Shown: in pieces, positions 21,429 through 57,679 of the stretch
Numbering within the stretch: position 1 is the first letter of the stretch
Layout: each line of letters begins with the position of its first letter
Assembly: GCF_026210795.1 (NCBI RefSeq)
Contig: NC_089430.1
Location: forward strand, 3,596,001-3,660,000
Source of the DNA: Rhizophagus irregularis
Taxonomy: Eukaryota > Glomeromycota > Glomeromycetes > Glomerales > Glomeraceae
Reading direction: 5' to 3'
Length of the DNA: 64,000 nucleotides
Notes under the pieces: model-generated
Seen by the model: the letters and a program-made list of their open reading frames with translations, nothing else
Database searches by the model: none
What the model was told of the DNA's origin: nothing
Position numbers and translations under genes: made by a program

Positions 21429-24248
21429 ATGGGTGACAGACGTGATAGTAATGATAATCAAGATGCAATTATTGATCAAAATAAAAAAAAACGTGGTCAT
21501 CCAAAAACTGATATTTGGGATTATTTTAAGGAAGGACCAAGAAATAGAGGTCACTGTACGGCAGAGTGTAATTTTTGTGGCTGGAAACAACAAGTAGGGC
21601 AGCCTATCGAAATGCAAGGACATATTGCTTTAAATTGTTTAAAGGTATCACCTGAAATAAAAGCAATTTTTTTGGAAAAAGTAAAGAATAATAGACAACT
21701 TGCATATAAAAATAAAATTATTAAAGTTGATCACAAATCACAATCAGCCAAAGATAGATGAAAAATTTGATTCAACCAAAATTGATCAAGTTAAAGTTGA
21801 AATGGCAAATCGGGCTATTGTAAAATTTTTTGTTTGCTGCGGCATCCCTTTTCATATAATCGAAAACCCTTTTTTTATTGATCTCCTTCGCATATTATGT
21901 CCTGGGTATAATCTACCATGCAGACAAACTCTTTCAGAAGATATGCTTAATGCAGAAATCTCTCATGTAATTACCGAAATAAATTTTAAATTAAGCCACG
22001 AAAAAAATCTTACATTAGGTAATAATAATTATTTTATAGATTTTACATAATTAAATATTATAATTTAATAATAATTTATTAACAGTTAATTTTAATTTCT
22101 TAATATTTAAAGGAGTAGACGGTTGGACTAGTGCTAGTGGACAATCACTTTACGCATTTATTATTATTACTAGTGAAAGAAAAGAATACGTTCATTCAGT
22201 TTAAAATTTATCAAATTATTCATACACGGGAGATTTTTTAGCAAACAAAATAATTGAAGTAATCGAAAATGTTGGTACTACAAAATTTGCAGGAGTAGTA
22301 TCAAATAATGCATCTACAATGGTCAAGGCAAAAAAACTAGTTAATGATCGATATGGATTTATAATGCCAATTCGATGCATTGCACATCATATAAATCTAT
22401 TAACTAACGATATTTGTAAATTAGAGTTTGCTCAATCAATATTGAAAAAATGTATGAAATTAGTTCATTTTTTCAAAGCATCACATCGGGCAGGTGCAGA
22501 ATTGATAAATGAAATAAAAGAAAATATGGTCAAAGGTGGGAAATTGAAAGGATATTGCCAAACAAGATGGATGACTGCATTTGATTGTGTTTCTTCAGTT
22601 TTAAGATGTGAAGAAGCTCTAAAAAATGTTGGTATTTATTAATTATATTTATTTATTTATTTATTTAATTTATTATAATTAATTTATTTTTAATTTTAGA
22701 TAGCAAATAATAATTCAGATTATTTAAAGAGGACCCCGGATATCTAATATAAAGGTCATAATGGATTTTCTTTTACAAAAACACCCCTTTTTGCTGAAAC
22801 TCAAAAAATCGTTTTTTGTAAATATCTCAGCATCCAGTAATTCAATTTTAATGAACTTTTTTTTATTTTGTAGCCCTCATTTAGCTCTACAATTTAAAAA
22901 AAAGTTCATCAAAATTGGACTACTGGATGCCGAGATATTTACAAAAAACGATTTTTTGAGCCCCTGAAAAATGGGCCAATCTGCCGAAAGTGTGACTTAT
23001 GACCTGTTTTGGAGATATCCGGGGTCCTATTTAAAGCAAAATATTAAAGAAATTATAACAAGACGTTTTTTTATGGATGCTGAAGAATTACAATTAATTC
23101 TTAAGCCAATAAAAGAAGCTATCAAATATCTAGAAATGAAAAATGCAACATTAGCAGATTGTTTCTTACAATTAATAAAATTATCTTATTCAATCAAAAA
23201 TTTATCAGAAACTCATACTACTTTCTGACAACAATGTATTAAAGCATTTAATAAAAGGTGGACACAGTTCGATTTTAGGTTATATATGTTAGCCTATTTA
23301 CTTCACCCATTATACCATGGTATGTATTTGATTAAAATAACTTGACTTTTTATTTTATTTTAATCAATTAATTATTAATTATAAATAGGTAAAGGATTCC
23401 GAAATCAAGTATGCCGAAAAGTAGTTTATTGGGCAATCGAAAATATATGGATAAAAATGGACGGTAGAGAAAATTCCAGTTCCAAATTAATCGGACAAAT
23501 TGCTGCTTTTCGTAACAATCTTCCTCCTTATAATGACGAATTTATTCCTAAATATTATACAGTTGAACATTGGTGGAATTACGTAGAACAAGATGAAGGA
23601 GAAGAAAATTTTATCCAACAACTTGCATTAAAAGTATTTTCAATAACTCCACATAATGCAGGATGCGAGAGAATATTTTCAGTAATGGGCTGGTATATAA
23701 ACAAAAGGAGAACTCGGTAACTATTATTATTTTATTATATTATTGCCATAGTTATTAATTTTTTTTGAATTTTTAAGTAATTCCTTTCAATTAGATTGAG
23801 CGTAAATCATTTACAAAACCTTACGAAACTCCACACATACTATGTTTCAAATGCGAAAACTGAATTAAAGTATACTGCTAAAGATATGAATGCTAAAAAT
23901 GATGAAGAGTTTTATCAATTGGTACGAAATGGTATATATCAAAATATTAATGATGAAATTGAAGAGAAAGAATTTGATGGTGAAGATGAAGATTATGATG
24001 ATACAGAAGACGAACTTGTTGATATAGATGAGTACGAAAAATTTGGCTATAAAAATAATGATAATGTTTTACAAAATGAAAATTATTTTAATTTTGTATC
24101 AAGGGAGTTAGTGGAATTATTAAAACTTCAGGAGCCGCAAGTAATTATTGAACCTGTAAATAGTGATCATATTATTGATCACGGTAACAAAAATTTCGAT
24201 ATAGAAGAATTATTAGACCAACAATTTAATGATGATGATAATGTTTAG
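21429..24248 (+). pseudogene. hAT transposase with BED zinc finger, broken
   Basis: Order of parts: an N-terminal BED finger ('DIWDYFKEG', CNFC, then HIALNC), the hAT region 'IVKFFVCCGIPFHIIENPFF', the first catalytic-type Asp in 'VDGWTSASG', the second in 'VVSNNASTMVKAKKLV' (Asp to Asn here), then 'KGYCQTRWMTA', and the C-terminal dimerisation motif 'PHNAGCERIFSVMGW'. It ends with an acidic tail at 24248. Several introns are likely (for example around 22,020-22,110 and 23,320-23,390). Lesions: a frameshift near 21,740-21,760, TAA at 22202, a 299-bp MITE in an exon at 22730, and TGA at 23226. The Asp-to-Asn change would itself affect catalysis if that alignment is right. It cannot make an active protein. 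Confidence 0.88.
22730..23028. mobile_element. 299-bp MITE nested in the hAT transposase exon
   Basis: The ends are AGGACCCCGGATATC and its inverted copy, flanked by perfect 8-bp repeats ATTTAAAG (22722-22729 and 23029-23036). The interior is a long imperfect palindrome ('cagcatccagtaattcaatt' against 'aattggactactggatgccg'). Removing the element and one target copy restores an open frame through the transposase exon. A decayed relative of the interior is at about 41,520-41,640. The 8-bp duplication suggests hAT-type mobilisation. Confidence 0.9.
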
Positions 24249-24509: not shown

Positions 24510-25130
24510 TTGCTGAATATACGCCAATATGAACTACTATGACAGAAGTTCTATTTTCTACAAAAAAAAATAAAAAAAAAGAAACGTTAGTACATTTATT
24601 CAAAGTAAATTCAAAAGAACTCGCCCCTATATACTTACATGTGTCCTAAAATATCTCCAGTAAGCAAAATCTACGAAAAAATAAAAAAATAAACGTTCTT
24701 ACATTTTCTTCAAAGTAAATTTCAAAAGAACCCACCCTCATACACTTACACGTGTCTTAGAAAGCAAAATCTTCAAAAAAAATTAAAAAAAAGAAACGTT
24801 AATACGTTTCTTCTAAGTAAATTTGAAAGAACTCGCCCTCATACACTTATATGTGTCCTAAAATATCTCTAGTAAGCAAAATCTACGAAAAAATAAAAAA
24901 AATAAACGTTCTTACGTTTTCTTCAAAGTGAATTTCAAAAGAATTCACTCTCATATACTTACACGTGTCTTAGAAAGCAAAATCTACAAAAAAAATTAAA
25001 AAAAAGAAACATTAGTACGTTTCTTCAAAATAAAATTCAAAGAACCCACTACGCTTACCCACATTCTAGAAGGTTCCTGGAAACTGAAACTTACAATAAA
25101 ATGAAAAAATGTTAATATATTTTAAAGAAA
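24510..25130 (-). repeat. Tandem exon-like units, minus orientation, in hAT tail
   Basis: About five units of 115-125 bp. On the minus strand each has a T-rich tract ending in GTAG or similar, a short exon-like core ('ATTTTGCTTACTGGAG' or a variant), then a donor-like GTAAGT and a hairpin around 'ACGTACTAACGT' or decayed forms. GTTAGTA (reverse of TACTAAC) is at 24586-24592. The splice-like signals are clear by eye; transcription is unproven. Confidence 0.65.
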
Positions 25131-26329: not shown

Positions 26330-27090
26330 GACACTATACTCTTCCCCATATACTTTACCGGATTCTTCTAAATTTTTAGGAATCCAGTAATCTAAAAAAA
26401 ATGAAAAAAGAAATGTCAATATGTTTCTTTAATACAATTAAATGCCATACACTCCTCCCATATACTTTACTGGATTATTCTAAGTCTAATAATCTGAGAA
26501 AATGAAAAAGAAACGTTAGTATGTTTCTTTAACATAATTGAACGTCATACATCACCCATATACTATACCAGATTCTTCCAAATTTCTAGGAGTCTGGTAA
26601 TCTTAAAAAAATGAAAAAAAAGAAACGTTAATACATTTCTTTAACAATGCTCCATATATCTAAGTCTGATTTATTAAAAAAATATTAAGTATTGCAAAAA
26701 TACTTACTGAATTTAAATACCAAGCTCAATATATCTTACAAAAAAAGAAAAAGAAATATTAGAACATTTCTAATAAAAAAAATTAAGTTTCGTAATTACG
26801 AAACTTACTATATTATGAAACCTACTATTTCGTCCTACAGATTCTACAAAGAAAAAATAAAAAGAACATTAGAAATGTTTTTTGAAAAATAAAAAAAATA
26901 TTGAAAATTTTGAAACTTACTCTCTCTTAGCATCCCAGTCCAGTTATCAAAAGCTGAAGGAAGTCTACAAAAATAAATAAAGAAACATTGGTAACGTTTC
27001 TTTAAAAAAAAATAAAAATAAAAGAATCAAAATTTCAAAATGAAACTTCAAAACCTAACTGAAATCTAATATTCCAGAGAGTATCTACAA
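26330..27090 (-). repeat. Array of exon-like units, minus orientation
   Basis: Read on the minus strand, at least three consecutive units have an acceptor-like T-tract ending in TTTAG, CTCAG or TTAAG, a 23-33-nt core beginning 'ATTACTGGATTC' or similar, and a donor-like GTAAAGTATATGG or GTATAGTATATGG. GTTAGTA occurs at 26516-26522. Further, more decayed units reach about 27,090. The similarity to the arrays at 35.5-38.7 kb marks one dispersed family. Confidence 0.65.
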
Positions 27091-27460
27091 AAAAATACTG
27101 GTTAAAATTGATGCTATTGGGTACATATCGGGTACCTAATATATGTATAATATATGTGATATATGTGTATGATATTTAACAATACTACACATATCGGATA
27201 CCTGATATGTGTAGTATAAATGTAGAAAAACGGTGACACATCCTACAAATATCATATATACATCATATACATATCGGGTAGTCAAATATCAGTGACATAT
27301 CTTATAAATATCATACATTTAATACACATATATCGGGTAGTAAAATATCAGTGATATATATTATAGATATCATACATTTAACACACATATATCGGGTAGT
27401 AAAATATTGGTAATATATATATAGATATTGTATATTTATATCATGTCAGATAGTAGCTAT
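27091..27460. repeat. Degenerate ATATCGGGTA satellite
   Basis: Many copies of a word close to 'acatatcgggtacctaatat' recur with irregular spacing of roughly 30-60 bp. A related block lies inverted at 37,090-37,410; both are bordered by 'ctggtnaaaatnnatgctat'. It has no coding potential. Confidence 0.7.
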
Positions 27461-28493
27461 ATACTATATTTTTATTGTATACGTTTTACAATTTCATATT
27501 AAAACTAATAGCTTTTTTTTTTAAAATTCAGACTAAATAAAATTTAATTTTATTAAAATTTATAAATTTTATTCACATAAAAGCAATAATACAAATCTTA
27601 CTCTATCTGCTATGTAAAAATCAAATAAAGTTGAATGTAATTATACTATGTAATATGAAAAGTTCTACTGAAAGTAGCAATGATAATAAAATTACCTCTT
27701 TGCTTGCTTTTGTTATATCTGTTTATTATTTAAAAGAAATATTAGCGAAAATATTAGTAAGTGTATTAATTAATAAGAGAAAAAAGGAAATGTTAATAAA
27801 AACGTTAGTGGTAAATATAGAAAATATTAGTAAAATGTTAGTAGGAAAAAAGAAAAGTTAGTAAAATAGAAAATATTAATAGGAAAACATTAATAAAAAT
27901 GTTAGTAGTATTTAATATTAATAGAAAATGTTAGTAATAGAAAACATTAGTAGGAGAAAAGAAAAAAATATTAGAACATCAATAGAAAATATATATATAA
28001 AAAGAAAAAAACAAGTATAATGAAAATATACCTCTATGTTTATTTCTAAATATAAAAATAAAAAAAAAAAATATTAATAATATTATTTCATAATAATTAA
28101 GTAAAGAGTTTGTTTAGTTTGTTTTAAATAATAAAAAGTTTAAGAGAAAGGTTTTTACGATGGAAAGAAAAAAAAATAAACAAAGTGCGAAATATAAACA
28201 CTTAAATCATGTGAACAATCGCCTGATTACAATAACAAATTCTGATTGGGCTATAGATTTTATGTCAATCTGGATTATTATAATTAATAAAAATGCATTT
28301 AACGTTCATGCAAATTTTGTACTACTCACTATGCTATTTATAACTAGAATTACACTGCAAATTAAACTCTTTATCGCTTTAAATAATACAAAACCCTACT
28401 TATATACCATTACACCCATCCACTAACCATTTAATCTAGGTTTTTTATTAATTTAAAACCCATAATAATGCATAAGATATAATCCTTTATAAT
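27461..28493. other. AT-rich intergenic DNA
   Basis: A/T-rich sequence with many 'gaaaaatattagtaa' words from about 27,780 to 28,000. An 89-codon ATG-led ORF at 28160-28426 has no recognisable domain and a composition like chance AT-rich DNA. Nothing else was found. Confidence 0.5.
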
Positions 28494-29099
28494 TCAGTTA
28501 ACAATTAATAATTTTATGATGGAAAAGAAATGAATATGTGAAAAGGGATGAAGTGAATGAAAGTGAATTAAAAGGACAATGTAAAAAATGAAATTGGAGT
28601 GAAAAGATAATGAAAATGAAATAGAAGTGAAGAGATGATGAAAAATGAAATAGGAAATGACGAAAAACAAAATGGAAGTGAAATGGAATGATGTAAAACA
28701 AAATGGAATGATGGAAAATAAAATCGAATGATGGAAAATAAAATGGAATGATGGAAAATAAAATGGAATTGAAGGAGATAATGAAAAAATAAAATGGAAG
28801 TGAAATGGGATGATGAAAACAAAATGGAAAAGAAATGAAATGATGTAAAACAAAATGAAACAATATAAAGCGAATTGAGATGTTAAAAAATAAAGTAGAA
28901 TGTTGCAAAATGATATGAAGGGATGAAAAACGATATGGAGCAATATGGAGTGATAAAAAACAATATGGAGCGATATGGAGTGATGAAAAATGATATGGAG
29001 CGATATGGAGTGATGAAAAATGATGTGGAGCGATATGGAGTGATGAAAAACAATATGGAGTAATATAGAGTAATGAAAAATGATGTGGAACAATATGAA
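28494..29099. repeat. GATATGGAG/GATGAAAAA minisatellite, left part
   Basis: Purine-rich degenerate repeat. The regular part from about 28,915 has units near 'gatatggagtgatgaaaaa' with 'gatatggagcgatatggagt' variants; the part from 28,500 is a looser 'ggaatgatggaaaataaaat' repeat. The same satellite continues at 34,531-34,850 on the other side of the 29,100-34,530 element. The minus-strand open frames rich in 'FHHSISLHI' are simply its translation. Confidence 0.85.
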
Positions 29100-29606
29100 T
29101 AAGGTTGCTTGCCGAAACCTGTTTGGCCTAATGCCGAAAGGTAAAACCTCTTATATAGTGCTGAAATGTTGAAATGCCAAAACTGCAAAACCTGTCAAAA
29201 TTGTGAAACTGCCGAAACATACCAAAACTTCAATAATAGGTTTTTCCGTAGTTTCGGCATAGTTGATCATAAGATTTGCATATAGTTACGCCAAGTTACA
29301 CCAATTAATAATATAATTTAGATAATCAAATAATCTACAGATAAAAGATTAAACTTCAATATTTTACCATCGTCTTAGTTCTTTTAAGCTTTATCTAGTG
29401 TTAGAATTTTCATTTCTAACTCCTATATTAATATTATGATATTACACGTTTTTGCAGTTTTTTTTAAGAGGCTTATATTCATTAAAGGAAAATGCGTAAC
29501 ATGCATTTAATAAACCCAATTCTGTCATCTTCTTTAACACTGAACTAAAGTTTCTTTTACTTTCTTCCGTTTTCTTAATAATAATATTAATAATAAACTG
29601 TTTCAA

Positions 29607-31904
29607 ATGACTGATCACATAGAAGATTCACCCATTAAAAAGAAAAATAGAGGAAGTCGGCCACCTAATAGCATTTGGAAAGATATTAATAAAGGAGAAG
29701 CTGTTGGTTCTGACAAATTTGCCGCCTCCTGCAAGTACTGTAAGAATACATGGGCACGCGGTGAAGTTTCAAAGCTCGAAGAGCATCTTTCAAACTATTG
29801 TCCAGATGCGCCAGCAGCAGTTGTTAGAAGGTATATAACTAAAGTAATGGAACAGCAAGATAAGTCCAAGTCATCCAAAAAAAGAAAATACTCTGAAGGT
29901 CAAAGTAACATGGATGATTATCATGATTCAACAGAGCTTAACGAACAAAGATGTACACGAATTAATCGTGCATTAGTTAAATTTTTTATTGCGTGCGGAA
30001 TTGCGTTTAAAGTAGTGGAACATCCCTTTTTCATCAATTTTATAAAATAGCTTAATGCCGGGTATAATATATCAATAAGGGAAGTATTAGTAAATCAACT
30101 ACTTGAACGTGAATTAGCTCAAGTGAACTTCAAAGTTAATTCTGAGCTTGAAAAGGAAACGAATTTAACGTTAGGTTTGTTAAATTAAATAAGCTATCAT
30201 ACGTGATTTTTATTTAATCTTACTTACTATATAATATTAATTTATAATTTAACCTTTGATGGTTGGACGTCTGGTACACATCGTTCAATTTGGAACTTCA
30301 TTGTAATGACTCTGTCACGTAAAGAATATCTTTATCAACTTTCTGATTTGTCTGAAAATTCGCACACTGCAGAATATTTAGTTACGGTAATTGAAAAGGT
30401 TATAGAAGGTATTGGAGAAGATCGAATATGTGCTGTAATTTCCGATAATACGGCCAATGTTCGTAATGCACGAAAAATTATACATGAGAATCATCCAAAG
30501 ATTGAGAATGTGTGATGCGTTGCACATTCTATCAATTTAATTGCATGCGACATTGTCAAGGAGAAGTTTGGAGAACGTTTATTAAAACGTATTAATATTT
30601 TGACAACCTTTTTTAGAAGTTCTCATCAGGCTAATGCAAAACTTGCTCAAATAATTAAAGAAAAAGGAATTAGTGGAGAAGGATTAAAATTATATTGCAA
30701 GACACGCTGGACTACTGCTAGTGAATCCGTAAATTCAGTAATAAATTTGGAATCAGCACTAGAAGAAATGGTCAGCGATCATGATAAAGTGCTAACAAAT
30801 GATAAAATAAAACTAATTATTCAATCGAGAAATTTTTTTCAAATTTACGAGTTCTTGGATTTGTTTTGGATCCTCTAAGAAAAGCAGTACTTTCATTAGA
30901 ATCGAGAAAAGCTACACTTGCAGATTGTTTCCTGAGCTTGGCAAGACTTACAGCTACATTAAAAAAGTTACCCAAATCATTAAATCCTGCATTCCGAAGT
31001 CATTGTATCAAAGTAATAAATGAAAGATTTGATGAGTTCGATGATGATAAGTATATTACTTGTTTTTTTATAGATCCCAGATTTAGAAACGCGCCACTTA
31101 AAAAATGCGACCTCATGAGAATTATCAAATGTGCAGCTTCAATCGGAAAAAATTTAGGTTTTGACCGTTACGAAGCTGAAACTTTATGTGATCAAATACA
31201 GAAATATATTAATGAACAAGAGCCATTTGACCTAGATATCGGTTTTGCTAAAGATAATCCTGTAAATTGGTGGAAATATATTAATACCGAACCAGAACCA
31301 GATGTCCTGCCAAGAATTGCAAGTTATCTATTTGCAATATGTCCTAACTCAGCAACTTGCGAATGTGGATTTTCGACTTTAGGATGGCTATTTCATAAAC
31401 GTCGCTTAAATCTTAATGTGGATAAACTAGAATCCATGTGCAAATTAATTTTGTATTGGAAATCCAATTCAAAAACTGAACTTGGATTTTATGGAATTGA
31501 TCAAAAAAAGAATACTCGTCTTAGTGATGATGAGATCAATATACGTATTGCAGAAGCTTTTGCAGAAGATGACGATGAGGAATATAATGAGGAGCAAGCT
31601 TCTACTCAGAGATTAACTATAAGTGCGAAACAATACCCAAAGACAATTGCCGTGTAGTAATCGAAAGTCTATGGATTGATCAATTTGTTAATTTATCGCA
31701 TAATTCAGTTACTAGTAAAATCGGCGATATTCCAAGAGATATATTGGATGATTCAGATGAAAATAATGCAGAAGATGATGAAGTTGATGATAGTGGTAAT
31801 AACAAGAGACCTGGAGAAGGTGACTATGATTATGATATAGATGATGTATTAGGTATGGATGACAGTGATAATAATGACGATAATTATGATGATAATGAGA
31901 AATG
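29607..31904 (+). pseudogene. hAT transposase of a second family, broken
   Basis: The ATG is at 29607. The N-terminus is basic, followed by a BED finger (CKYC then HLSNYC) and the hAT signature 'LVKFFIACGIAFKVVEHPFF'. The first catalytic-type Asp is in 'FDGWTSGTHRS' (after an intron near 30,180-30,250) and the second in 'VISDNTANVRNARK'. Next come 'LYCKTRWTTASE', 'ATLADCFLSLARLT', and the C-terminal dimer motif 'CPNSATCECGFSTLGW' with the probable catalytic Glu. An acidic Asp/Asn tail ends near 31,904. Lesions: TAG at 30048, TGA at 30513, a frameshift near 30,840-30,870 beside a T run, and another near 31,640. It is clearly diverged from the copy at 21.4 kb. Confidence 0.88.
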
Positions 31905-32248
31905 ATAATAATGAGAATTAATTACAATAGTTAATCCAATGAGAATTAATTCTAATATCATGTGATTTAAATAATGATACTATTTAGGAAATAAATGATG
32001 TAATTATGCAGGGCAAAATATTCGCGATCAAAGTCCAGTTAACATATAATTATGCAGGAATTGTAATTTTATATTATATTTTAAACATTGTAATTTAATT
32101 AAGGAATAAGGATAAGCATATTATATTTTAAAAATAGTGCAATTTAATTAAGGAATAAGGATAAACAATTATATTAGAATCAATAAGTTTTAAGGACTTC
32201 GTTAATTAAATTTATTACATTAGATCAATAAATTTTAAGAACTGCGTT

Positions 32249-33321
32249 GAGATCCCCCAATTCCCTCTGTCATCAATTTACAGAGTTGCCACATCGAACA
32301 GGTATTCTCATGGTCGAACGAATGAATAATCGAACGAATGAACAATTAAACGAACAAGCAAATAATCAACAGCATAATTAACGAACAACATACAATAACA
32401 ATATATAACAACATTTTTGGTTCACAACATAAATAGCGTTAGTAATATAAAACATCAAACGGTATAAAATAAATTTAACTTCTCTAAATTTTTCCCAAAT
32501 TATATCCACTTTTACCTTTAATTTCAAACTTCGATAGCTCTCGCTACAAATTATTACTTTTCAAAAACATATATTTAATTCATCTTAAAATTTTCATTTT
32601 ATTCAATTAAAATTAATTAAGCAAACATTAATTAAAGTTTAGGGCGAACCTATTACCTTTAATTAATATTAAACTTTACTAACAAATAATTAAATGAAAC
32701 TTATATTTTTATTGAGTTCTGTGGATGAGAACTATGGAATTACTTTGAATTCCGCTCTCTATTTATACAAATTTTATGCTACTTTCTATTCTATCTATAT
32801 ATTATCTTTGAACTATCTTTCTAATATGCTATCTATATTTTAAATACGCTATCTTTTAATATGCTATCTTTTATATATGTTCTTTTTAATATGTTATCTT
32901 TTATGTTCCATCTTTATACTATCTTTTTATATTATCTTTTATATTATTTTATGTTCTTTAATCTTTCTGACATTATTTTATATGTTCTTTCAATTCACTT
33001 TATGTGTTTTGCTTATAATCTATCTTTTGTGGCTTATAATTATTCTTTCTAATCGTTCTTATTGTTAAAGATTGCTAAGCCGCAATTGATCGACTCTAAT
33101 TATTCTATTGGTTCTTTGTCAATCATTCGATAAATATTACATCATGTAGATCATTACTCTTCCTAAATGTTTATCCTTTTTCGGCTAATTATTTATCCAT
33201 CTACGTCAATTCATAATTAATTTGTTCGTTCTTAATATTTGGAAATTACATCTGGTGATTGAATTTTATCATCTTTTCATGCTTGATATTTGACCGTTTA
33301 CAGCGTTACAAAAAAAAATTT
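32249..33321. mobile_element. Retro-insertion with A-tract and 11-bp target duplication
   Basis: An 11-bp direct repeat AGAACTGCGTT flanks the segment (32238-32248 and 33322-33332). It splits what was one unit of a short tandem repeat ('aattaaatttattacattaga'). The right end reads 'cagcgttac' followed by nine A's, like a short poly-A tail, which fits target-primed insertion of a SINE, truncated LINE or processed transcript. The interior is T-rich low complexity ('atgctatctttta') with no ORF. The parent element is not identified. Confidence 0.55.
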
Positions 33322-33562
33322 AGAACTGCGTTAATTAAATTTATTACATTAGAATCAAAACTGTGTTTATTTTGTTACAAATACTTTAATTATGTAGAAT
33401 GTTATTATGTTCATCAGTTCATGTTTTAAACATTATAAGTTATAACGAATTTTAAAATTAGTATAAATATTATGAAATTTGAAGTATATAGGATTTTTTT
33501 TTCGCAATACAAAACCAAATTGTATTTTAATTTTCGTTACGAAAAAATCATAAAAATAAAAA

Positions 33563-34214
33563 ATGGCAGCATTAGTACCTTTTGTTCCACCGCCACCACC
33601 AGTATTCCAATGGACGATTAACGCTGCTAGGCAACTAATCGCAGAGCGAAGAAACTTGCATCAGCAATTCGAAAGAATTGCAAACCGTCATCATGTAAAT
33701 GCATGGACAATAATAGCAAATAGGGTGTTCGTTGGAACGGGATTTGCAGCGACACCCAGGCAGTGCTATACAAAATGAAATGCCCTCAAACGAGGTTATG
33801 AAAACCTCAGTAGGATAATAAATAATAATGATGATGACATTCCTATTATAAGACCAAATAGTTTCGATAGAGCGTGTTTTGCTGATATGAACGATAAATT
33901 CTGGTTACAAACCGGTAATTATTATTAATTATTATTTTAAATTAATTTTATTTAGGCAATTCATTCAATTCATTAATATTTTTATTGGATTTTAGATCTG
34001 TTTAGACGAGAGTATCGACGGCAGCTATGCTGCGCATGATCGACGTCGATATGAATATAGATTGCAAAGGGAAAGAAGAAGGTCGCGATCTAGGTCATGA
34101 TCAAGAAGTAGATCAAGAAGTAGAGATAGAAGACGAGATAGAAGTAGCGATAGAAGACGGGACAGAAGTAGAGATAGAAGAAGAGGTAGAAGCAGGTCCT
34201 CACATAGAAGATAA
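33563..34214 (+). pseudogene. Second gene of the 5.4-kb element: SANT-like, RS-tailed protein
   Basis: The ATG is at 33563. Exon 1 (33563-33914) encodes a proline-rich start ('FVPPPPPVFQW') and a helical region with 'QFERIANRHHVNAWTIIANR', then 'TPRQCYTK', a stop, and 'NALKRGYENLSRI'. This looks like a trihelix/Myb-SANT DNA-binding fold in which the usual Trp codon TGG has become TGA. Splicing to 33996 continues 'DLFRREYRRQL'; a frameshift near 34,030 leads into an Arg/Ser-rich tail ('RSRSRDRRRDRSSDRRRD') ending at 34214, interrupted by one TGA. RS tails are known from SR splicing factors. A role as DNA-binding accessory factor for transposition is inference. Confidence 0.6.
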
Positions 34215-34530
34215 AAATATTAAAATTTAATTTTTATTATATTTTTAATCGTATATTTTATTAGTTTAATATTAAATATTATAAAATAAATATTTACATA
34301 CAAAAAATCATATTGTCTTTATTCTTATAAATTGTTTAAATGCCAAAACTCTAATTAAATCATATAGAAAGTATTGCCGAAACGCTGAAACAATTTCGGC
34401 AAGTTACAGCAGTTTCGTGATTTTGATAGGTTTCGCAGTTTCGGCATTTCTTGATGATTTTGCAAAACTAGTTTCGGCAGTTTCGCGTATGTCATTCTGC
34501 CAAAACCTCTAGTTTTGGCAAGCAACCTTA

Positions 34531-34850
34531 AATATGGAATGATGAAAAATGATATGGAGTGATATGGAGTAATGAAAAAGAGTAATGAAAAATGATATGG
34601 AGCGATGTGGAGTGATGAAAATGATATGGAGCAATGTGGAGTGATAAAAAACGATATGGAGCTATGTGGAGTGATGAAAAATGATATGGAGCGATATAGA
34701 GTGATGAAAAATGATATGGAGCAATATGAAGTAATGAAAAATGATATGGAGCGATGTGGAGTGATGAAAATGATATGGAGCGATGTGGAGTGATAAAAAA
34801 TGATATGAAGCCATGTGAAGTGATGAAAAATGATATGGAAGCAAAAGGGA
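34531..34850. repeat. GATATGGAG/GATGAAAAA minisatellite, right part
   Basis: About ten units near 'gatatggagcgatgtggagt' plus 'gatgaaaaat', continuing the satellite at 28,494-29,099. It was separated from it by insertion of the 5.4-kb element. Confidence 0.85.
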
Positions 34851-35480
34851 CGATGATAAATGAAAAGGATAATTAAAAACAAAATAAGAACAAAGGGAAT
34901 CGTGAGAAAAATAAAATGGAGGCGAAGGGAATAATGAAATAATAAAAATAAAAGGAGCGAAAAAAATAATAGAAAATAAATGAAAAAAGAGTGAAATGGA
35001 TATAGAAAATGAAAAGGGAATAAAGTGGATGATAGAAAATAAAAGAAACTGTTAGTATCATTTTCAATAAAGAAAACAATAAAATAGCAAAATACTAGTA
35101 ATAAAAGTGAGTCTTATCTTAAACTCTTTGAAGTTATTTGAAATTGTTGTTTTCTGAAAAACAAGTTAACAAGTTAGCATAAAAGAAAAAAAACATTAAA
35201 CTAGCAAAGTAATAAGAAAATAAAAAAATTTTACCTTAAGAAATTTCAGAAAAAGCTGATCATTTTGGAAATAATACTACAAGAAAGCAAAAAACAAAAT
35301 GTGCTACGTGTTTGTGTAATATGAAATCATCTGGTAAATTTCACTGGGATAAATTTAAAAATTTTGATCAAGGTGAAATTCACCAGAGGTGAATGTAAAA
35401 TTAATCTGTTAGGAAGTTTTGGCAACGCGAAACTGCAACTGAAATCGACACTGCTATATTCGGTTTATCATCATATAAAA
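34851..35480. other. Purine-rich then AT-rich intergenic DNA
   Basis: To about 35,060 this is a decayed purine-rich extension of the minisatellite. The rest is AT-rich with a small palindromic patch ('ggtgaaattcaccagaggtgaa') near 35,370. No gene was recognised. Confidence 0.45.
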
Positions 35481-36531
35481 AAAAATTCATTTTTTTTTAT
35501 ATTTTTTTATATTTTTTTTTTGTAGGTCGGACTCTTATTTTTTGTAAAATATCGGACCCTTGGAGACCAGGACGAACCGTACCTACACAATAAAGGTAAT
35601 GTGGGAGAAGGGGCTGGGGTTACTATTTTGTAATTAAGAAACATTTTTAATGTTTCTTTCTTTTTTTTGTAAAACTAGGACGCCAGACTCTTGAAAATAA
35701 ACCCGGACTTGGATAATGTAAGGAATAGGGAATGGGAAATTTTTTCTTTAATATTAAAGAAATGTACTAACGTTTCTTTCTTTATTTTTTTTTGTAGGAC
35801 TAGGACGCCAGATTCTTGAAAACGAACCTGAACTTGGATAACGTAAGGAATAGCAGGGAATGGGAAATTTTTTCTTTAATATTAAAGAAACGTACTAACG
35901 TTTCTTTCTTTATTTTTTTTGTAGGACTAGGACGCCAGACTCTTGAAAATGAACCTGGACTTGGATAATGTAAGGAATAGGAAATGGGGAATTTTTTCTT
36001 TAATATTAAAGAAACGTACTAACGTTTTTTTCTTTATTTTTTTTGTAGGATTAGGATGCTGGACTCTTGGAAACAAATTAAACCCGGACTTTGAATGTAA
36101 GGAATAGGAAATGGGAAATTTTTTCTTTAATATTAAAGAAACGTACTAACGTTTTTTTCTTTATTTTTTTTGTAGGATTAGGACACCAGACTCTTGAAAA
36201 CAAATTGAACCTGGACTTTGAATGTAAGAAATGAGGGAAGGGAAGAGGGGTATTTTGTAATTATGAAACGTTTTTAACGCTTCTTTCCTTTTTCTTTTGT
36301 AGGATGCCAGACTCTTACAAATCTGAACTTATGCAGCAAAGGTACTGGGAAAAGGGGAATTCTTTTGATATTAAAGATGGAAATGTACTAATGTTTCTTT
36401 TTTTTGATCTTTGTGGGTTTTAGCTTCCTGGAATGACATTTTGAATGGGCAAACATTTCTTTAAGGGTGGCGTTTGAAATTGACTTTGAGAAACGTTTTA
36501 ATGTTTCTTTTTTTTTTCTATTAAGTTTTAA
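35481..36531 (+). repeat. Array of exon-like units with full intron signals, plus orientation
   Basis: Seven units of about 125 bp. Exon-like cores at 35798-35842 (45 nt), 35925-35969 (45 nt), 36049-36096 (48 nt) and 36176-36223 (48 nt) start after TTTTGTAG and end before GTAAG. Each intron-like spacer has the palindrome TTTCTTTAATATTAAAGAAA, an exact TACTAAC (35765, 35893, 36017, 36144) and a T-rich tract before the acceptor. Cores share 'CCAGACTCTTGAAAA'. Units at both ends are more decayed. In the frame free of early stops each unit ends in or next to TAA/TGA, so no long ORF forms on joining. Confidence 0.8.
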
Positions 36532-36809
36532 TAGTTGTTTATTGGAATCGAACTAACTGGAACATTGTTCCAAACCATTAACAACAAATTAATGTAAAAT
36601 AATAAATGTATTCAAAAATAAAATGTATTTAAAATAAATATAAATAATTTCATAAATTGTATACATAAATAACATACTATTGGAATTTTTTTTCATGTAA
36701 AAATTTCAGGTTACTTGATTACCTGAAGTGACCTGAATTAACCTGAATATTTTTGGGTCAGACAGGTTAGGTCAGGTTAGAATAGGTTACCCGATCTGAC
36801 TTGACCCGT
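36532..36809. other. Repeat module shared with 25.8 kb, plus CCTGA-rich spacer
   Basis: 36532-36588 is the inverted match of 25841-25895. From about 36,710 to 36,800 there are several 'gacctgaa'/'caggttag' words reminiscent of the termini of GC-rich MITEs in this window. No gene. Confidence 0.5.
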
Positions 36810-37075
36810 TTAGAGTTCTCACTTACTCCAAGGAGTCTGTCAACCTAAAAAAACAAGAGAAAGAAATGTTAGTAACATTTCTTTAATATTAAAATAATCA
36901 CCTTTCCAACTTACATTCTAAAGTTTGAAATAGTCCAAGGAGTCCAGAAACCTAAAAAAAATAGAGAATGAAACGTTAGTAACATTTCTTTAATATTAAA
37001 AATATCACCCTTTCCAACTTACATTCCAAAGCCCGAGTTCATTCAAAGAGTCTGGCAACTTAAAAAAATAGAGGT
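36810..37075 (-). repeat. Exon-like units, minus orientation
   Basis: On the minus strand, three cores of 36, 37 and about 22 nt are separated by intron-like spacers starting GTAAGTTGGAAAGG and ending in TTTTTTTTAG or TTTTTTTAG. GTTAGTA (reverse TACTAAC) lies at 36868 and 36975. The first core has 'CCAGACTCTTTGAATGAACT', clearly related to the plus-strand array at 35.8 kb. Confidence 0.75.
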
Positions 37076-37089
37076 AAAAATATAGAATT

Positions 37090-37410
37090 TTTTTTATTAA
37101 AATAGATTGATCGACCGGTATGACGGTTAATTAAATTTAGATTATCAAATTCTAATAGAATATCGATGTCGATATATCAAAATGTATCATACAAATATTA
37201 GTACCTGATATATATTAGAAATATATCGGTGACATATTGGGCAATATATATCTGATTATATAGGTGCCCAAAATACCAGTGTATATCGGTGACATATTGG
37301 GTACCCAATGTGTATCTGATATATGTAAATACCCGATATATATCTGATTAGTCACTGATATATAGGTGCCTGATATATATCCGATAGCATAGATTTTGAC
37401 CAGTAAAAAA
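37090..37410. repeat. ATATCGGGTA satellite, inverted copy
   Basis: This is the same degenerate family as 27,091-27,460, in the opposite orientation. On the minus strand it starts 'ctggtcaaaatctatgctat' and runs through repeated 'gatatatatcgggt' words. Confidence 0.65.
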
Positions 37411-37419
37411 AAGAAACAT

Positions 37420-38700
37420 TAATATAACGTTTCTTACAAAAAAAAGAATAAAAAAAAAATTGTTTTGCAACATTTAAACTTACTGTTTCATTTTAAAGCA
37501 CTAAGCCAAACACTTGAAACTACAAAAAAAGAGAAAAATATTAATATAACATTTTTCAAAGAAAAAAAAATTTTTTTTAAGTTTCGTAACGTAACTAAAT
37601 GTTGTGAAACTCACCATCATTTCAAATTTCACAAGGCCGAAATACTTGAACCTACAAAAAAAAGAGAGAAACATTAAAATAATATTTCTTACAAAAAAAA
37701 ATAAATAAAAAATAAGTTTTGCATTGTGAAACTTACCATTCGAGATTTACTATTTCAAAGCTTTCCACTTGAACTTACAAAAAAAAGAGAAAAATATCAG
37801 AATAACGTTTTTCAAACTCTCAAAGAAAAAAAATTGTAAGTTTTGCAACATGTTGCAAAACTTACCATTCATTTTATTGAAAAATAAAAAAAGATATTTT
37901 GAAGTATACTTGAAGTATACCTTCAAAATGTCGAGTTTAATTTTGTCTGTCTAAGGAGCCATCCAAAAGAAATTGAATCTAAAAGAAAAAAAATGAAACA
38001 TTAATAAACATTTCATTGAAAAAAAACAAAAAAATATTTCAAAGTATACTCCAAGTATATTTTTAAAATATCAAGTTTCATCCGTCTAAAGAGCCATCCA
38101 AAGAACACAGGTCGAAATGCTAAAAATCAGCAAAAAAAATGGCGTGAAAAGCAGTGGCTATTCTTGGCTATTCTTGGCTATTCTTGACTATTCTTAGCTA
38201 TTTTTAGCTATTTGCGAATTAACCTATACTATTTGTAAATAGTTTATATAAATTTGCGAATAGTTTATGCAATTCTAGCCATTTTTTTTGCCTGTTTTTG
38301 ATCATTCGACGTGTGGAAGTCGAACTTAAAAAAGCAAAAAAAAAATGAAGCGTTAATAAATATTTCGTTAAAAAAAAAACTAAAAAAGAAAGACATTTTG
38401 AAGTATATATACCTTCAAAATGTCTTATTGATTTTTGTCTGTCCAAGAAGTCAAGAAGCCGTCTAAAGAAGCCAAATCTAAAAGAAAAAAAATGAAACAT
38501 TAATAAACGTTTTATTGGTCAAAAAAACAAAAAAATAATTATTTTGAAGTATACTTAAAGTATACCTTTGAAATATTGAGTTTCATCTTCAAGGAGCTAC
38601 CTAGCTGAATCTAAAATGAAGCATTAATAAATGTTTCGCTAGTTAAAAAAATAAAAAAATAAATTATTTCGAAGAAGTATATCTTTGAAATATCGAATTC
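37420..38700 (-). repeat. Long array of exon-like units, minus orientation
   Basis: At least eight units. Minus-strand acceptors such as TTTTTTTGTAG or TTTTTTCTTTTAG precede cores like 'TTCAAGTGTTTGG', 'GTTCAAGTATTTCGG', 'ATTCAATTTCTTTTGG' and 'ATTTGGCTTCTTTAGAC'. These end before GTAAGTTT, GTGAGTTT or GTATACTT donors. Spacers carry 'gaaacatt'/'aacgttt' hairpins. A 10-bp microsatellite lies inside at 38157-38212. No long ORF. Confidence 0.7.
38157..38212. repeat. 10-bp microsatellite (GGCTATTCTT)n
   Basis: Five to six consecutive units of ggctattctt, with the last two decayed to 'agctattttt'. Confidence 0.85.
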
Positions 38701-38749
38701 TGAACCTATACCTTCAGCGTTTTGGACTTAAAAAATAAAAAAAATATTA

Positions 38750-52029: not shown

Positions 52030-52260
52030 ACTATAACTTTTGTGAATACAGTCAACTCCCTCTATAGTCACTCCTGTTATAGTCACATTCTACTATATAG
52101 TCACACCAGTTGAATGTTCAAAACACTTTATTATTAAAATCTATCCTATATAGTCACAATCTATCTATAGTCACTATCACACCTATCCTCAAAAATCTTA
52201 TATTAAAAAGAACCGTTTATAATCACAGTTATATAAAAAATATATTAAATAACTTGGCAT
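52030..52260. repeat. TATAGTCAC repeats, possible pogo/Fot-type end
   Basis: The sequence begins 'cagtcaactccctctatagt' preceded by TA, which looks like a pogo/Fot-type terminal repeat beside its TA target. Several more 'tatagtcac' copies follow. Similar 'tatagtcacatctctttata' sequence reappears at about 57,362. No transposase lies between. Confidence 0.45.
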
Positions 52261-52329
52261 CTAATAATCGTACAAAGATGTATCATAGCTTGTTAGAATC
52301 GTCTCACTGAGACGAATCGAATGGTGGTA

Positions 52330-55300
52330 GCTTTATCCTTTTCCTTTGCTAATGTTTACGGCCAGACCACCCATTGCCTCTTATGACTAATTTCGGGTCG
52401 TGTCTATCATCTTCCGATGGGCAACCGTTATACCGAGTAGTTAACTCAGTAACATTGCACCACTATAGAAGACATCCCCCATCGGGCCATTATAGGCTGA
52501 TCTGAAGCTAGGTACACGCCGCCTACTCATCCTATACCCATTGCACGATACTGATACTCAATTTATTTAACGACCGCTTTAGAAAGCATCTACTTTCGTG
52601 AGAACTTTCGACAGGTAACATCAACCATCTAGTACCCTTCCATACCACCATTTTAGGTACTAAGTCTCACTCAAAGGCCACTACAGCCCGCGATTACCTA
52701 GCACCGATAGTACAGTTCGTTTCCCCAGCCCCAAAGGTATACTTTGTATAGGCGACCACTGGATTGCAATAAGCAGCTTCGTTCCATGGATCACCTCTTA
52801 TGGCGTATCAACCACCAGGATCACCAACCAAGACCTCGAAGTGGGGAATCGAACCCCATAACCATGCTACCTGTTCTGTGCACGAACACCTTGGTTGGTC
52901 TAAGACCTAACAGAAGGTCAAACTACCACTAAGCATTACACCCTCAGCTTTACCATCTAGGGACGACCATCTCCCCAGCCACACTACCCCAGCCCCAAGG
53001 TATGTTGGGGTGAGCCGACCACCGAACAGGAAGCCCCCCCAAGCGGTATAGAGCGACCTCAAGACAGGACTGCGCACATACCAATCGGCCTCATAGGGAA
53101 CGTTAAGACACCAGCGACTTAGTGAAATGCGCGGCCTAACCGTACACACTAATTCACCATGTGATGCACTCCAACATTACAACTGTACCTTCACGCTATT
53201 CGCACAGGCTGTACGTCCGCAGTAAATTCTTTTTTATTTCCGTATCATGGGGAATCGAACCTGCGACCTCACCATACTCAGGTTTAATGGCAATTGAGGC
53301 CTCTCGACTAACCACCGAGATAAGTGGCATGACCCCTGCAGCTTTATCCTTTCCTTTGCAAGCGTTTGCCACGGTACCACCCATCATTGCCTCTTACGAG
53401 ACTAATCTCGGTATCTGCGTCCTATCATCTTCAATGGGCAACCATTATACCGAGTACTGAATTCCTCAGAATAACAGCACCACTATACATACCCCCATCC
53501 CCCAGGGCCATTTTAGCTGATCTGAAGCGTACACGCCGCCTACTCATCCTATACCCATTGCATGATACTGATACTCAATTTATTTAACGACCTTTGTTTA
53601 GAAAGCATCTACTTTCATGGAGGACTTTCGACAGGTAACATCAACTATCTAGCACCCTTCCATACCACCATTTTAGGTCTAGCCTCACTCAAAGCGCCTA
53701 CTAGCATGACATTACCTAGTACCGATAGTACAAATGCTACCCCAAGCTGGTATACTTTATAGCGACCACTCAGACAAGAGTATAAGATCGTCCAGAGGAT
53801 CACCCCTTACATGCACATCAACCACCAGTGATCACCAACCAGAGACTCCAAGGAAAGAATCGAACCCCATAGCCATGCTACCTGCTCGCGCACGAACACC
53901 TTGGTTGGTTCCAAGACCTAACAGAAGGTCTAACTACCACAAGACATTGCACCCTCAGCTTTACCATCTATGACGACCATCTACCTATATCGACATCAAG
54001 CGGCATCATGAGCCGACCACCCAGACAGGAAGCCCCCCGCGTATAGTAAACACCTCGCCATAGCGACTGCGCACATGCAATCGGCCTCATAGGATGCGAG
54101 ACACTACGACCCTAATGTGCGCCAACCGTACACACTAATTCACCATGATGCAGTCCAACTACACTAATCCCCGTACCTTCACGCTATTGGTCAGAAGGTC
54201 TCCGCAAAGTAAAATTCTTTTTATTTCCGCTGGTCATGGGAATTGAACCTGCGACCTCACCATACTCAGGCTTAATGAGGCCTTCGAGCGACACCACCAA
54301 GATAGGCCAGTGACCAACCCTTAGCTTTATCCTTTTCCTTTGCTAACGTTTACGGTCCGTACCCACCCATTCGCCTCCCATGGCATTCAATCTCGGTCGC
54401 GTCCTATCATCTTCAATGGCGAACCATTATACCGAGCATTTCTTCATCGCAACAAGACCACTATAAGACATCTGCCCCATCGGGCCATTATAGGCTGATC
54501 TGCCAGGTGACACGCCGCCTACTCATCCTATACCCATTGCAATGAGATACGATACTCAATTTATTTAACGACCTTTGGGAGAAGATCTACTTTCACGGAT
54601 ACTTTCGACAGGTAACATCAACCATCTAAGACCCTTCCATACCACCATTTTAGCATCAAGCCTCACCTAAAGGGCCACTACAGCCCGCGATTACCTAGCA
54701 CCGATAGTACAGTTGTTTACTGCCCCAAGTGGTATACTTTGTAGTCGACCACTGGACAGGGAAGTACACTTCTGTCCAGGATCACCCCTTATGGTGGGTA
54801 TCAACCACCAGGATCACCAACCAGGACCCAAGAAGTGGGGAATCGAACCCCATAACCACCTGCTACCTGTTCTCCGCGCACGAACACCTTTGGTTGGTCT
54901 AAGACCTAACAGAAGGTCAAACTACCACTAAGACATTGCACCCTCAGCTTTACCATCTAGGGCAACCATCTAGCCATTACTGACCCCGAAGTGGTATCGT
55001 GGAGTGACCACCTGAACAGGAAGTCCCCCCAAGCGTATAGTAGGACTCACGACAGGACTGCGCACATACCAACGGCCTCATAGGAACGTTAAGGAGGACC
55101 ACACCTTAGTTGAAATGTGCGGCCTAACCGTACACACTAATTCACCATGATGCAGTCCAACTACACTAATCCCTGTACCTTCACGCTATTGGTTGTAGCG
55201 TCCGCAGTAAAATTCTTTTTATTTCCGTGGTCATGGGAATCGAACCTGCGACCTCACCATACTCAGGCTTAATGAGGGTCTCAGTGACTAACCACCGAGA

Positions 55301-56771: not shown

Positions 56772-57270
56772 GATCACTGGCTGACGAGTTATTCAACAAA
56801 ATGTTAAACATCAGCATTATAATATTTCTTGATTTACGTTTACTGCGCCATTTAACATTTTGCTAGATTTCTCAGTACCTAGTGATTATAAAAAGACGAT
56901 TTATAGCTCGTTGGAATCGCCTCGTCGAGACGAATCGAATGGTGGTAAGCTCATCTCTCTGTGATCAATATTGACGGAGTTATTACTTAAAAACCATTTA
57001 ATATTTTTTAATTTCAGAAATTGATCTAGTGATTGGATTTCGATGTATCTTATACCATTAGATTCGTCTCATCAAGACGAATCGAATGGCGGTAAGATCA
57101 TCTCTCTACGATTAATATTGGCAGAGTTATTACACAAAAACCATTAATATTTTTTTAATTTCGGAAATTAATCTAGTGATTGGATTTCGACGTATTTTAT
57201 ACCATTAGAACCGTCTCATCATGACGAATCGAATGGCGGTAAGATCATCTCTCTACGATTAATATTGGCG
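56772..57270. repeat. 147-bp tandem repeat, MITE-derived
   Basis: Unit starts near 56,912, 57,058 and 57,206, each with a 'cgtctcatcaagacgaatcg' hairpin, then 'aatggcggtaagatcatctc' and 'tctagtgattggatttcgac'. The first unit is preceded by 'gatcactggctgacgagtta', which matches the inner arm of the 39.9-kb relic. It is thus the other half of the MITE-like sequence that starts before the satellite at 52,260-52,329. Confidence 0.7.
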
Positions 57271-57640
57271 AAGTTATGATACAATAAAGTTTTAAGTATA
57301 ATTCTGGCTAAAATTATGTTAATTTTTGGCCGGAATTATGATATACAAATATAAGAAATTTTTTATATAGTCACATCTCTTTATAATCACCAAATATTAT
57401 GCGTTTCTGTAATAGTATAGTTTTTCTTTACTTAATTTTATTTTGTTTAGATTTCTTTACTTGTATGAATCGTGAAGCTAGTTCTTTTTATTTTTTGTTT
57501 AATTTTCTATATTTTGTAATATTGTTCGATTTGTTTATTGTACTTTTCGTTTTAAAATTTATAATAAAAGATAAAGTCATCAGACTGTTTGCTCATAATC
57601 ACCAAATATGGAGGATCATCGCAACTCTTTCCTGAATTTT
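57271..57640. other. AT-rich spacer before the LINE
   Basis: This contains 'tatagtcacatctctttata' and a nearby 'ataatcaccaaatat' repeated at 57,385 and 57,595, related to the 52-kb TATAGTCAC repeats. No gene. Confidence 0.45.
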
Positions 57641-57679
57641 TGAAAATACTAATAAAAATTTATTTTTGAAATTTTCGTT

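What the first reader, a model, noticed from the sequence alone, without database searches (positions are those of the whole stretch)
35481..36531. Tandem micro-exon-like units with complete intron signals
At least four consecutive units each have an acceptor (TTTTTGTAG), a 45- or 48-nt core, a GTAAG donor, and between them a spacer of about 80 nt with an exact TACTAAC and a T-rich tract. The spacing (about 124-128 bp) and the co-ordinated conservation of donor, branch site and acceptor are what a chain of real introns would show, yet the joined cores end in stops and give no long ORF. The spacers also contain a perfect 20-bp palindrome (TTTCTTTAATATTAAAGAAA). This could be a multi-exon non-coding transcript, a duplicated exon of a lost gene, or a transposon part that hides itself by splicing.
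Basis: partly seen in the sequence, partly recalled or inferred. Interest (0 to 1): 0.8.

Follow-up and report, generated by a model that had tools for sequence, protein, structure and literature searches.

The report
Chains of hairpin introns inside transposons
A fungal-looking genome carries hundreds of copies of an intron-like core, which in the loci read form short chains with mini-exons inside jumping genes and hold the branch site in a hairpin; if these chains are spliced, transposons have built removable introns that seem to code for nothing.

Summary
Window 35596-36175 (+) holds five complete intron-like units (donor, branch motif, T-tract, TAG acceptor). The array belongs to a non-autonomous CACTA-type DNA transposon (E1, about 27097-37404; terminal repeat CACTGGTCAAAAT; 3-bp target duplications in 10 of 11 other elements whose two ends were read). 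The branch 22-mer occurs at 456 places in the genome (reversed control 0). Sequence-divergent chains of the same design lie on the window's minus strand and in other elements, some found only by their terminal repeat. A strict intron model finds 42 introns on the sense strand of nine chosen segments, against 2 antisense, 1 reversed and 2.2 in shuffles. 36 of 42 have a branch-site hairpin with z below -3, against 1 of 10 control introns. Hairpin arms differ between families but stay self-complementary. The window's joined exons have stops in all frames; 10 of 48 exons read have lengths divisible by 3. Against function: among E1 copies neither splice sites nor hairpins are better conserved than neighbouring sequence, and sister elements exist without intron arrays. 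Best reading: transposon-borne arrays of spliceosomal hairpin introns, probably spliceable. Purpose unproven; no RNA evidence was available.

The parts
27097..37404 (.). E1: non-autonomous CACTA-type transposon copy (terminal repeats ACTGGTTAAAATTGATGCTATTGGGTA... and ...GATTTTGACCAGT). It contains a later insertion at 29100-34530; without it about 4.9 kb.
   Evidence: copies on C2, C19, C29, C9, C16 and C6; L028 matches 27095 and 37405 next to each other, i.e. lacks E1.
27097..27123 (+). left terminal inverted repeat of E1 (outermost C changed to T at 27096)
37378..37404 (-). right terminal inverted repeat of E1 (expected outermost G at 37405 reads A)
35596..35678 (+). intron unit 1 (GTAATG ... 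TTTTAAT ... ACTAG), 83 nt
35718..35797 (+). intron unit 2 (GTAAGG ... TACTAAC ... GTAG), 80 nt
35843..35924 (+). intron unit 3, 82 nt
35970..36048 (+). intron unit 4, 79 nt
36097..36175 (+). intron unit 5, 79 nt
36224..36302 (+). intron unit 6 (GTAAGA ... TTTTAAC ... TTGTAG), 79 nt
   Evidence: segment position 825, length 79.
36342..36423 (+). unit 7, damaged in the window: GTAC donor and TACTAAT branch kept, acceptor TTTGTAG of the other copies reads TTTGTGG; the next AG is at 36423
35886..35905 (+). branch-site hairpin AGAAACGT-ACTA-ACGTTTCT (example; also at 35758, 36010 and 36137)
36827..37073 (-). second array of E1, minus strand (family F1b, branch palindrome AGAAATGTTACTAACATTTCT)
24557..25058 (-). 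array F4 next to a hAT-like transposase end (ORF 23796-24248, not itself scanned)
   Evidence: the ORF and array are colinear in L027.
26345..27096 (-). array F5 (left of the E1 insertion), including a donor palindrome AAGTTTCGTAATTACGAAACTT
37405..38711 (-). units F9/F10 (continuation of the same older element, right of E1), with 5' splice-site and branch palindromes

Best explanation
The array is a module of a non-autonomous CACTA-type (EnSpm/Plavaka-like) DNA transposon. It consists of tandemly duplicated spliceosomal intron units, mostly 70-98 nt, separated by mini-exons of mostly 21-54 nt that show no consistent coding frame. Each intron of the model carries a U1-type donor, a U2-type branch site, a pyrimidine tract and a YAG acceptor. 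In most, the branch site sits at the loop of a short RNA hairpin; in some families the 5' splice site also lies in a second hairpin that straddles the exon-intron border. Shown: the signals, their order, strand, spacing, number, hairpins and transposon context. Inferred: when the element is transcribed on that strand, the spliceosome can remove the units, so the repeat part of a transposon transcript collapses to a short RNA. Array growth is probably by unequal exchange or replication slippage helped by the palindromes. Selection acts on active master elements rather than on dead copies. The likeliest benefit is that transcripts of the element, or of genes it lands in, are not burdened by the repeats. 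That last step is a guess (about 25%).
For: E1 borders and target duplications: TIR at 162 places with up to 2 mismatches, reversed control 0. 3-bp duplications in 10 of 11 elements other than the window copy whose two ends were read: TGA, TCA, TAT, TAA, CTA, AAT, TTA, TAC, AGG, TAT; C19 has none. Strict intron model over nine chosen segments: 42 sense, 2 antisense, 1 reversed, 0 complement, shuffle mean 2.2; density 4.07 per kb against 0.11 per kb in the window outside 21-39 kb, both strands. Of 16 loci fetched by terminal repeat alone, 7 have at least 4 model introns on one strand and 0-2 on the other. Branch hairpin z below -3 in 36 of 42 introns against 1 of 10 control introns. Branch consensus YTNAY on the T-tract strand in 138 of 149 palindromes against 4 of 149 on the other strand, and in 54 of 65 distinct 20-mers against 4. 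Hairpin arms differ between families but stay complementary: branch arms 0.89 paired against 0.52 when arms are swapped; donor arms 0.99 against 0.41. F7 (L037/L038) and F8 (L041) were found by terminal repeat alone. The genome's U2 RNA has GTAGTA, complementary to TACTAC with the branch A bulged.
Against: No transcript evidence could be obtained. Within six E1 copies neither the splice core (4 of 67 non-CpG columns variable) nor the branch hairpin (9 of 113) is clearly more conserved than exons (25 of 296) or other intron sequence (29 of 315). Four sister elements with the same ends (L051-L054) have an 81-bp array and no intron array, only one weak model intron each, so intron arrays are not needed for mobility. 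E1 carries intron chains on both strands, pointing at each other in its right-hand part, which does not suit a simple scheme for splicing the whole element out. Donor hairpins are strong in 16 of 42 introns only, 15 of them in F8/F11, and the donor ranking does not differ from controls (p 0.13). Hairpins that pair part of the 5' splice site should hinder U1. The hairpin lists were partly chosen by eye, and two of the eight branch hairpins paired only 4 and 5 of 8 as I had framed them.
Confidence: 0.57

Rival explanations
1. The palindromes and GC-rich exon motifs are DNA-level sites (subterminal repeats bound by a dimeric transposase, as in EnSpm). The intron-like look is inherited from an old intron and has no RNA function now.
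For: CACTA elements carry subterminal repeats bound by a TnpA-like protein (passages of PMC4219821). The arrays occur in both orientations within E1 and in L035/L036. Splice and hairpin columns are not specially conserved among E1 copies.
Against: A DNA palindrome has no strand, yet the branch motif stands on the T-tract strand in 138 of 149 and on the other in 4. Donor, branch and acceptor persist in families whose exons and arms differ. Donor palindromes of unrelated sequence also lie at the 5' splice site. Elements lacking the arrays are dispersed too.
Confidence: 0.22
2. Neutral relics: one multi-intron transcript was tandemly duplicated, and palindromes drive repeat expansion. The signals look conserved only because arrays are young and homogenised.
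For: Arrays within a family are highly alike. E1 copies evolve without extra constraint on splice sites or hairpins.
Against: Families with different exons, arms and loop registers keep donor, branch and acceptor. Loop changes mostly keep YTNAY. This needs either constraint or repeated fresh origin.
Confidence: 0.15
3. The units are coding micro-exons, or decayed ones, of a captured or transposon-own gene.
For: With an acceptor six bases downstream, three of the window cores are 39-nt frames that stay open (DARLLKINPDLDN-like). In 5 of 9 segments at least one frame of the joined exons has no stop (7 of 27 frames; the longest is L025, seven exons, 261 nt).
Against: Only 10 of 48 exons are a multiple of 3; typical lengths are 22, 31, 32 and 46 nt, so the frame turns from unit to unit. 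All three joined frames contain stops in the window array and in L024, L037 and L041. Most single exons are short enough to be open by chance.
Confidence: 0.06

Closest known systems
Introners / fungal introner-like elements (PMC9860276, passages; PMC8469720, passages)
   Same: Multi-copy introns with inverted repeats or stable secondary structure, in part linked to DNA transposon features (TIRs, target duplications).
   Different: Introners are introns inserted in host genes. Here the intron units form chains with short exons inside longer transposons; no insertion into a host coding exon was seen in the loci read (not searched systematically). PMC9860276 main text has no hit for Rhizophagus, Glomero, Mucoromycota, tandem or hairpin.
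Internally symmetrical (stw)introns of Hypoxylaceae (PMC8469720, passages)
   Same: Short symmetrical introns; the paper proposes that symmetry matters for multiplication.
   Different: There the repeats are terminal (45-55 nt), and branch A and terminal Gs are frequently unpaired in the predicted hairpin. Here separate small hairpins hold the branch site and sometimes the donor, and the units are in tandem.
CACTA/EnSpm elements removed with an intron of a host gene, e.g. soybean TgmR* (PMC4219821, passages); maize Ds/dSpm (recalled)
   Same: CACTA-type ends, 3-bp duplications, subterminal repeats able to form stem-loops; splicing interacts with the element.
   Different: There the host intron containing the element is spliced; the passages seen describe no tandem chain of complete introns in the element.
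Plavaka family of Rhizophagus irregularis (PMC11075540, passages)
   Same: A CACTA/CMC/EnSpm-type family prevalent in several strains of this fungus; a Plavaka transposase lies about 1 kb from one array on C1.
   Different: The main text has no occurrence of 'intron', 'splic' or 'tandem'. That our genome is this fungus is an inference.

Membership tests
CACTA/EnSpm (CMC) DNA transposon | terminal inverted repeats beginning CACT(A/G) | tested here: met
   CACTGGTCAAAAT ends, 162 places, reversed control 0. In the window copy the outermost base is changed on both sides.
CACTA/EnSpm (CMC) DNA transposon | 3-bp target site duplication | tested here: met
   10 of 11 other elements whose two ends were read; C19 not; C30 showed no opposite end in the stretch read and is not counted. 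Window copy: AAA within a poly-A stretch, uninformative.
CACTA/EnSpm (CMC) DNA transposon | own transposase gene | tested here: not met
   E1 outside the hAT insertion has only ORFs in or across the AG-rich minisatellite (199, 136 and 175 aa; not scanned against Pfam). L037 has two ORFs of 80 aa or more (91 aa; 121 aa, largely flank), L038 none, L051-L054 one of 94 aa. Genes split by introns were not modelled. E1 is filed as a non-autonomous element. A Plavaka transposase (PF18759, 1.1e-12) lies near array F3 on C1, but its link to these ends was not shown.
U2-type spliceosomal intron | donor, branch site, Y-tract and YAG in order and spacing | tested here: met
U2-type spliceosomal intron | removal from RNA | not testable with these tools
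   No RNA reads or cDNA are held.
Introner / introner-like element | near-identical introns at many positions in host genes | tested here: inconclusive
   11 of 11 loci taken because the branch palindrome looked isolated in the hit lists again showed a neighbouring unit of the same kind. No insertion into a host coding exon was seen in the loci read; not a whole-genome test.
Stwintron | one intron nested in a splice element of another | tested here: not met
   Window units are in series, not nested.

The most novel reading that the evidence does not exclude
Several DNA transposon lineages of one fungus have kept or built arrays of 'presented' introns: complete spliceosomal introns whose branch site, and in some families whose donor, is displayed at the loop of a self-complementary hairpin. 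The arrays make spliced non-coding transcripts that let the element pass through, or manipulate, the host's splicing-linked RNA surveillance.
Probability: 0.3. Interest if true: 0.87.

Novelty: new variant of a known kind. Interest (0 to 1): 0.64.

Why it matters
Where new introns come from is a long-standing question. Here one genome holds intron units that are tandem, hairpin-bearing and transposon-borne, with no consistent coding frame: 42 were read by a strict model, and one branch core alone stands at 456 places. They would give a natural series for testing how hairpins around the branch and donor sites affect splicing, whether structured introns multiply more readily, and whether splicing shields transposon RNA from silencing.

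Tried and rejected
Coding reading of the cores: disfavoured but not excluded (see rival 3). A known structured RNA: no Rfam match at gathering score in the window. tRNA: none. hAT element as owner of the E1 array: rejected, because the hAT ORFs at 29607-31657 lie in a later insertion (29100-34530), which L009 lacks. Host introner: no support in the loci read. Selection within E1 copies: tested, no significant signal (with CpG columns included 7 of 72 against 59 of 351, p 0.087). A first alignment of E1 copies took wrong, over-long borders and was redone with anchors; L022 dropped out of that redo because its anchors did not fit, so six sequences including the window were used. In one search the branch of F8b was mis-assigned by the script (z 0.9). 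In one search the loose intron detector also fires in 0-15 of 100 shuffles, so one search replaced it.

Sampling limits: 16 loci were fetched by terminal repeat alone (L037-L048, L051-L054); of L039-L048 only 2.5-2.6 kb at one end. By tandem-repeat consensus, 3 show intron arrays (L037, L038, L041), 5 only the 81-bp array (L040, L051-L054) and 8 no tandem array of period 75-260. By the strict model on both strands L037, L038 and L041 have 10/0, 0/10 and 2/9, L040, L043, L047 and L048 have 0/4, 5/0, 4/0 and 0/4 (non-tandem, not folded; no ORF above 85 aa in L043 and L048), L045 and L051-L054 one each, L039, L042, L044 and L046 none. One search scored only 40 of 262 candidates, so 77 matches is a lower bound. 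Places listed were cut at the first 100. The nine segments were chosen as known arrays: L055 and L059 by palindrome, L037 and L041 by terminal repeat, five from the window. One search used a different nine.

Literature: ten library queries were allowed and nine used. I saw no listed paper on such arrays; I read passages of four papers only, and subscription journals are mostly missing.

Full report
OBSERVATION. The window lies at C2:3596001-3660000 of a 146.7-Mb genome in 32 contigs. Size, contig number and AT-richness fit Rhizophagus irregularis, an arbuscular mycorrhizal fungus; this is an inference and was not tested. The array is real: period 127 at 35653-36204, complete introns at 35596-35678, 35718-35797, 35843-35924, 35970-36048 and 36097-36175, and a sixth at 36224-36302. 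With a strict model (donor class, strong branch, first AG after the branch used as acceptor, pyrimidine tract) the segment 35400-36560 gives 6 introns sense, 0 antisense, 0 reversed, and 0.12 on average in 200 dinucleotide shuffles.

OWNER. Six further genomic copies align with 34532-37404 or most of it, in one or two pieces, at about 86-94% identity. The repeat ends at 27097 and 37404 in CACTGGTCAAAAT terminal repeats, found at 162 places with up to 2 mismatches and 0 in the reversed control. 3-bp target duplications were seen in 10 of 11 other elements whose two ends were read. A paralogous locus, L028, matches both window flanks next to each other, without E1. E1 has no transposase of its own that I could see: outside the insertion only ORFs in or across the AG-rich minisatellite. 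The hAT-like ORFs at 29607-31657 lie in a later insertion at 29100-34530, flanked by AATATGAA/AATATGGA (read), which L009 lacks. E1 is thus a non-autonomous CACTA-type element of about 4.9 kb.

A CLASS, NOT A SINGLE ARRAY. The branch 22-mer AGAAACGTACTAACGTTTCTTT is found 456 times with at most one mismatch, reversed control 0; only some of these places were read. Units come in several families with different exons and 5' intron halves: F1 (E1), F2 (L025, L035, L036, L017), F3 (L024, L026, L029), F4 (L027 and window 24.56-25.05 kb), F5 (L028 and window 26.4-26.9 kb), and others. Two more came from loci fetched only because they carried the terminal repeat. F7 (L037/L038, period 122) has donor GTGAGTATT, branch hairpin AAGAACGTTTATTAACGTTCTT and acceptor TTTTTTGTAG. 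F8 (L041, period 137) has donor GTAAGTACG, branch hairpin GAACGGTTAATACTAACCGTTC and acceptor TTTTTTTTTAG. Their branch cores occur 206 and 49 times with at most one mismatch, reversed controls 0. 11 of 11 loci taken because the branch core looked isolated again showed a neighbouring unit of this kind. Of the 16 loci fetched by terminal repeat alone, 7 have at least 4 model introns on one strand and 0-2 on the other.

HAIRPINS. Over nine chosen segments the strict model finds 42 introns; 36 have a branch-site fold with z below -3, against 1 of 10 introns of the same model in the window outside 21-39 kb (Mann-Whitney p 1.3e-5). For donors it is 16 of 42 against 0 of 10, not significant as a ranking (p 0.13), and 15 of the 16 come from F8 and F11. 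In 149 relaxed palindromes the branch consensus YTNAY stands on the strand of the T-tract in 138 and on the other strand in 4; among 65 distinct 20-mers it is 54 and 4. The first AG downstream is preceded by T in 125 of 149, by C in 2, A in 17, G in 1, none found in 4. Swapping arms between families destroys pairing: branch arms 0.89 own against 0.52 swapped, donor arms 0.99 against 0.41. That set was chosen partly by eye, and two of its eight branch hairpins paired only 4 and 5 of 8 as framed. Striking donor cases are GACATTTTGAAG-GTATATATA-CTTCAAAATGTC and GTAAGTTTTGCAACA-TGTTGCAAAACTTAC in the window's minus strand, and three different stems in three successive introns of the L055-L062 family (F11). 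The genome's U2 RNA carries GTAGTA, so TACTAAC is a canonical target.

CODING. Exon lengths between successive introns are near constant within a family (for example 32, 31, 46) and 10 of 48 are multiples of 3, where chance gives about 16 (units of one family are not independent). The window array has 6, 9 and 6 stops in its joined frames, and all three frames are closed in L024, L037 and L041. In the other five segments at least one joined frame lacks stops (7 of 27 frames in all; longest 261 nt in L025). A second acceptor six bases downstream would leave three 39-nt window exons open. I read the exons as non-coding because the frame turns from unit to unit, but coding is not excluded for every family.

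RESULTS AGAINST FUNCTION. In six E1 copies, variable columns outside CpG are 4 of 67 in the splice core, 9 of 113 in the branch hairpin, 25 of 296 in exons and 29 of 315 in other intron sequence: no significant difference for the splice core (the hairpin was counted, not tested). It is what dead copies of any transposon should show; constraint would act on master elements, and what persists between families fits that, but this is inference. Four elements with the same ends, L051-L054, have 27-44 copies of an 81-bp unit and no intron array, only one weak model intron each, so the arrays are not needed for mobility. E1 carries intron chains on both strands, pointing at each other in its right-hand part.

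OTHER TRANSPOSONS. Array F4 is colinear with the end of a hAT-like ORF in the window and in L027 (Dimer_Tnp_hAT weak, 0.0048 and below its cut-off, for the L027 ORF; the window ORF was not scanned). Array F3 lies downstream of a hAT C-terminus in L024 (1.5e-12) and of a near-identical ORF in L026, and about 1 kb from a Plavaka transposase on C1 (PF18759, 1.1e-12 and 1.1e-6 for two pieces). In L027 and on C1 the array is convergent with the transposase; in L024 it is on the same strand. Whether array and transposase belong to one element was shown only by co-occurrence.

COMPARISON. Fungal introner-like elements are also structured, multi-copy introns (passages of PMC8469720), and introners often bear transposon marks (passage of PMC9860276); both sit in host genes. 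CACTA elements are known to be removed with a host intron and to have subterminal stem-loop repeats (passages of PMC4219821). A curated study of transposons in R. irregularis reports Plavaka as prevalent in several strains, and its main text contains neither 'intron' nor 'splic' nor 'tandem'. In nine library searches I saw no description of tandem intron arrays in transposons.

VERDICT. A real, repeated and unusual architecture: transposon-borne chains of complete, hairpin-bearing spliceosomal introns. That they derive from introns and could be spliced is well supported; that they are spliced, and why, is open.

Noticed in passing
29100-34530: hAT-type insertion inside E1: ends TAAGGTTGCTTGCC.../...GGCAAGCAACCTTA, 8-bp duplication AATATGAA/AATATGGA with one mismatch; ORFs with BED finger and hAT dimerisation matches just below Pfam's cut-offs.
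   Followed up: partly
L037:735-4212; L051-L054: 81-bp tandem array of 27-44 copies in CACTG-ended elements, with 242-bp higher order; no intron signals.
   Followed up: partly
L040, L043, L047, L048: Four CACTG-ended loci with 4-5 model introns on one strand only, not in tandem; could be a multi-exon gene of the element. No ORF above 85 aa in L043 and L048.
   Followed up: partly
28912-29099 and 34532-34863: 30-bp AG-rich minisatellite (unit like ATATGGAGTGATGAAAAACGATATGGAGCA) of variable length inside E1, split by the hAT insertion.
   Followed up: partly
52258-63413: GC-richer block with a reverse transcriptase ORF (RVT_1, 61920-62606) and a roughly 1-kb tandem unit repeated about four times at 52328-56755.
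   Followed up: no
E1 copies, 35430-36560: Exon differences between E1 copies are concentrated at CpG sites (34 of 59 variable exon columns), as expected for methylated repeats.
   Followed up: partly
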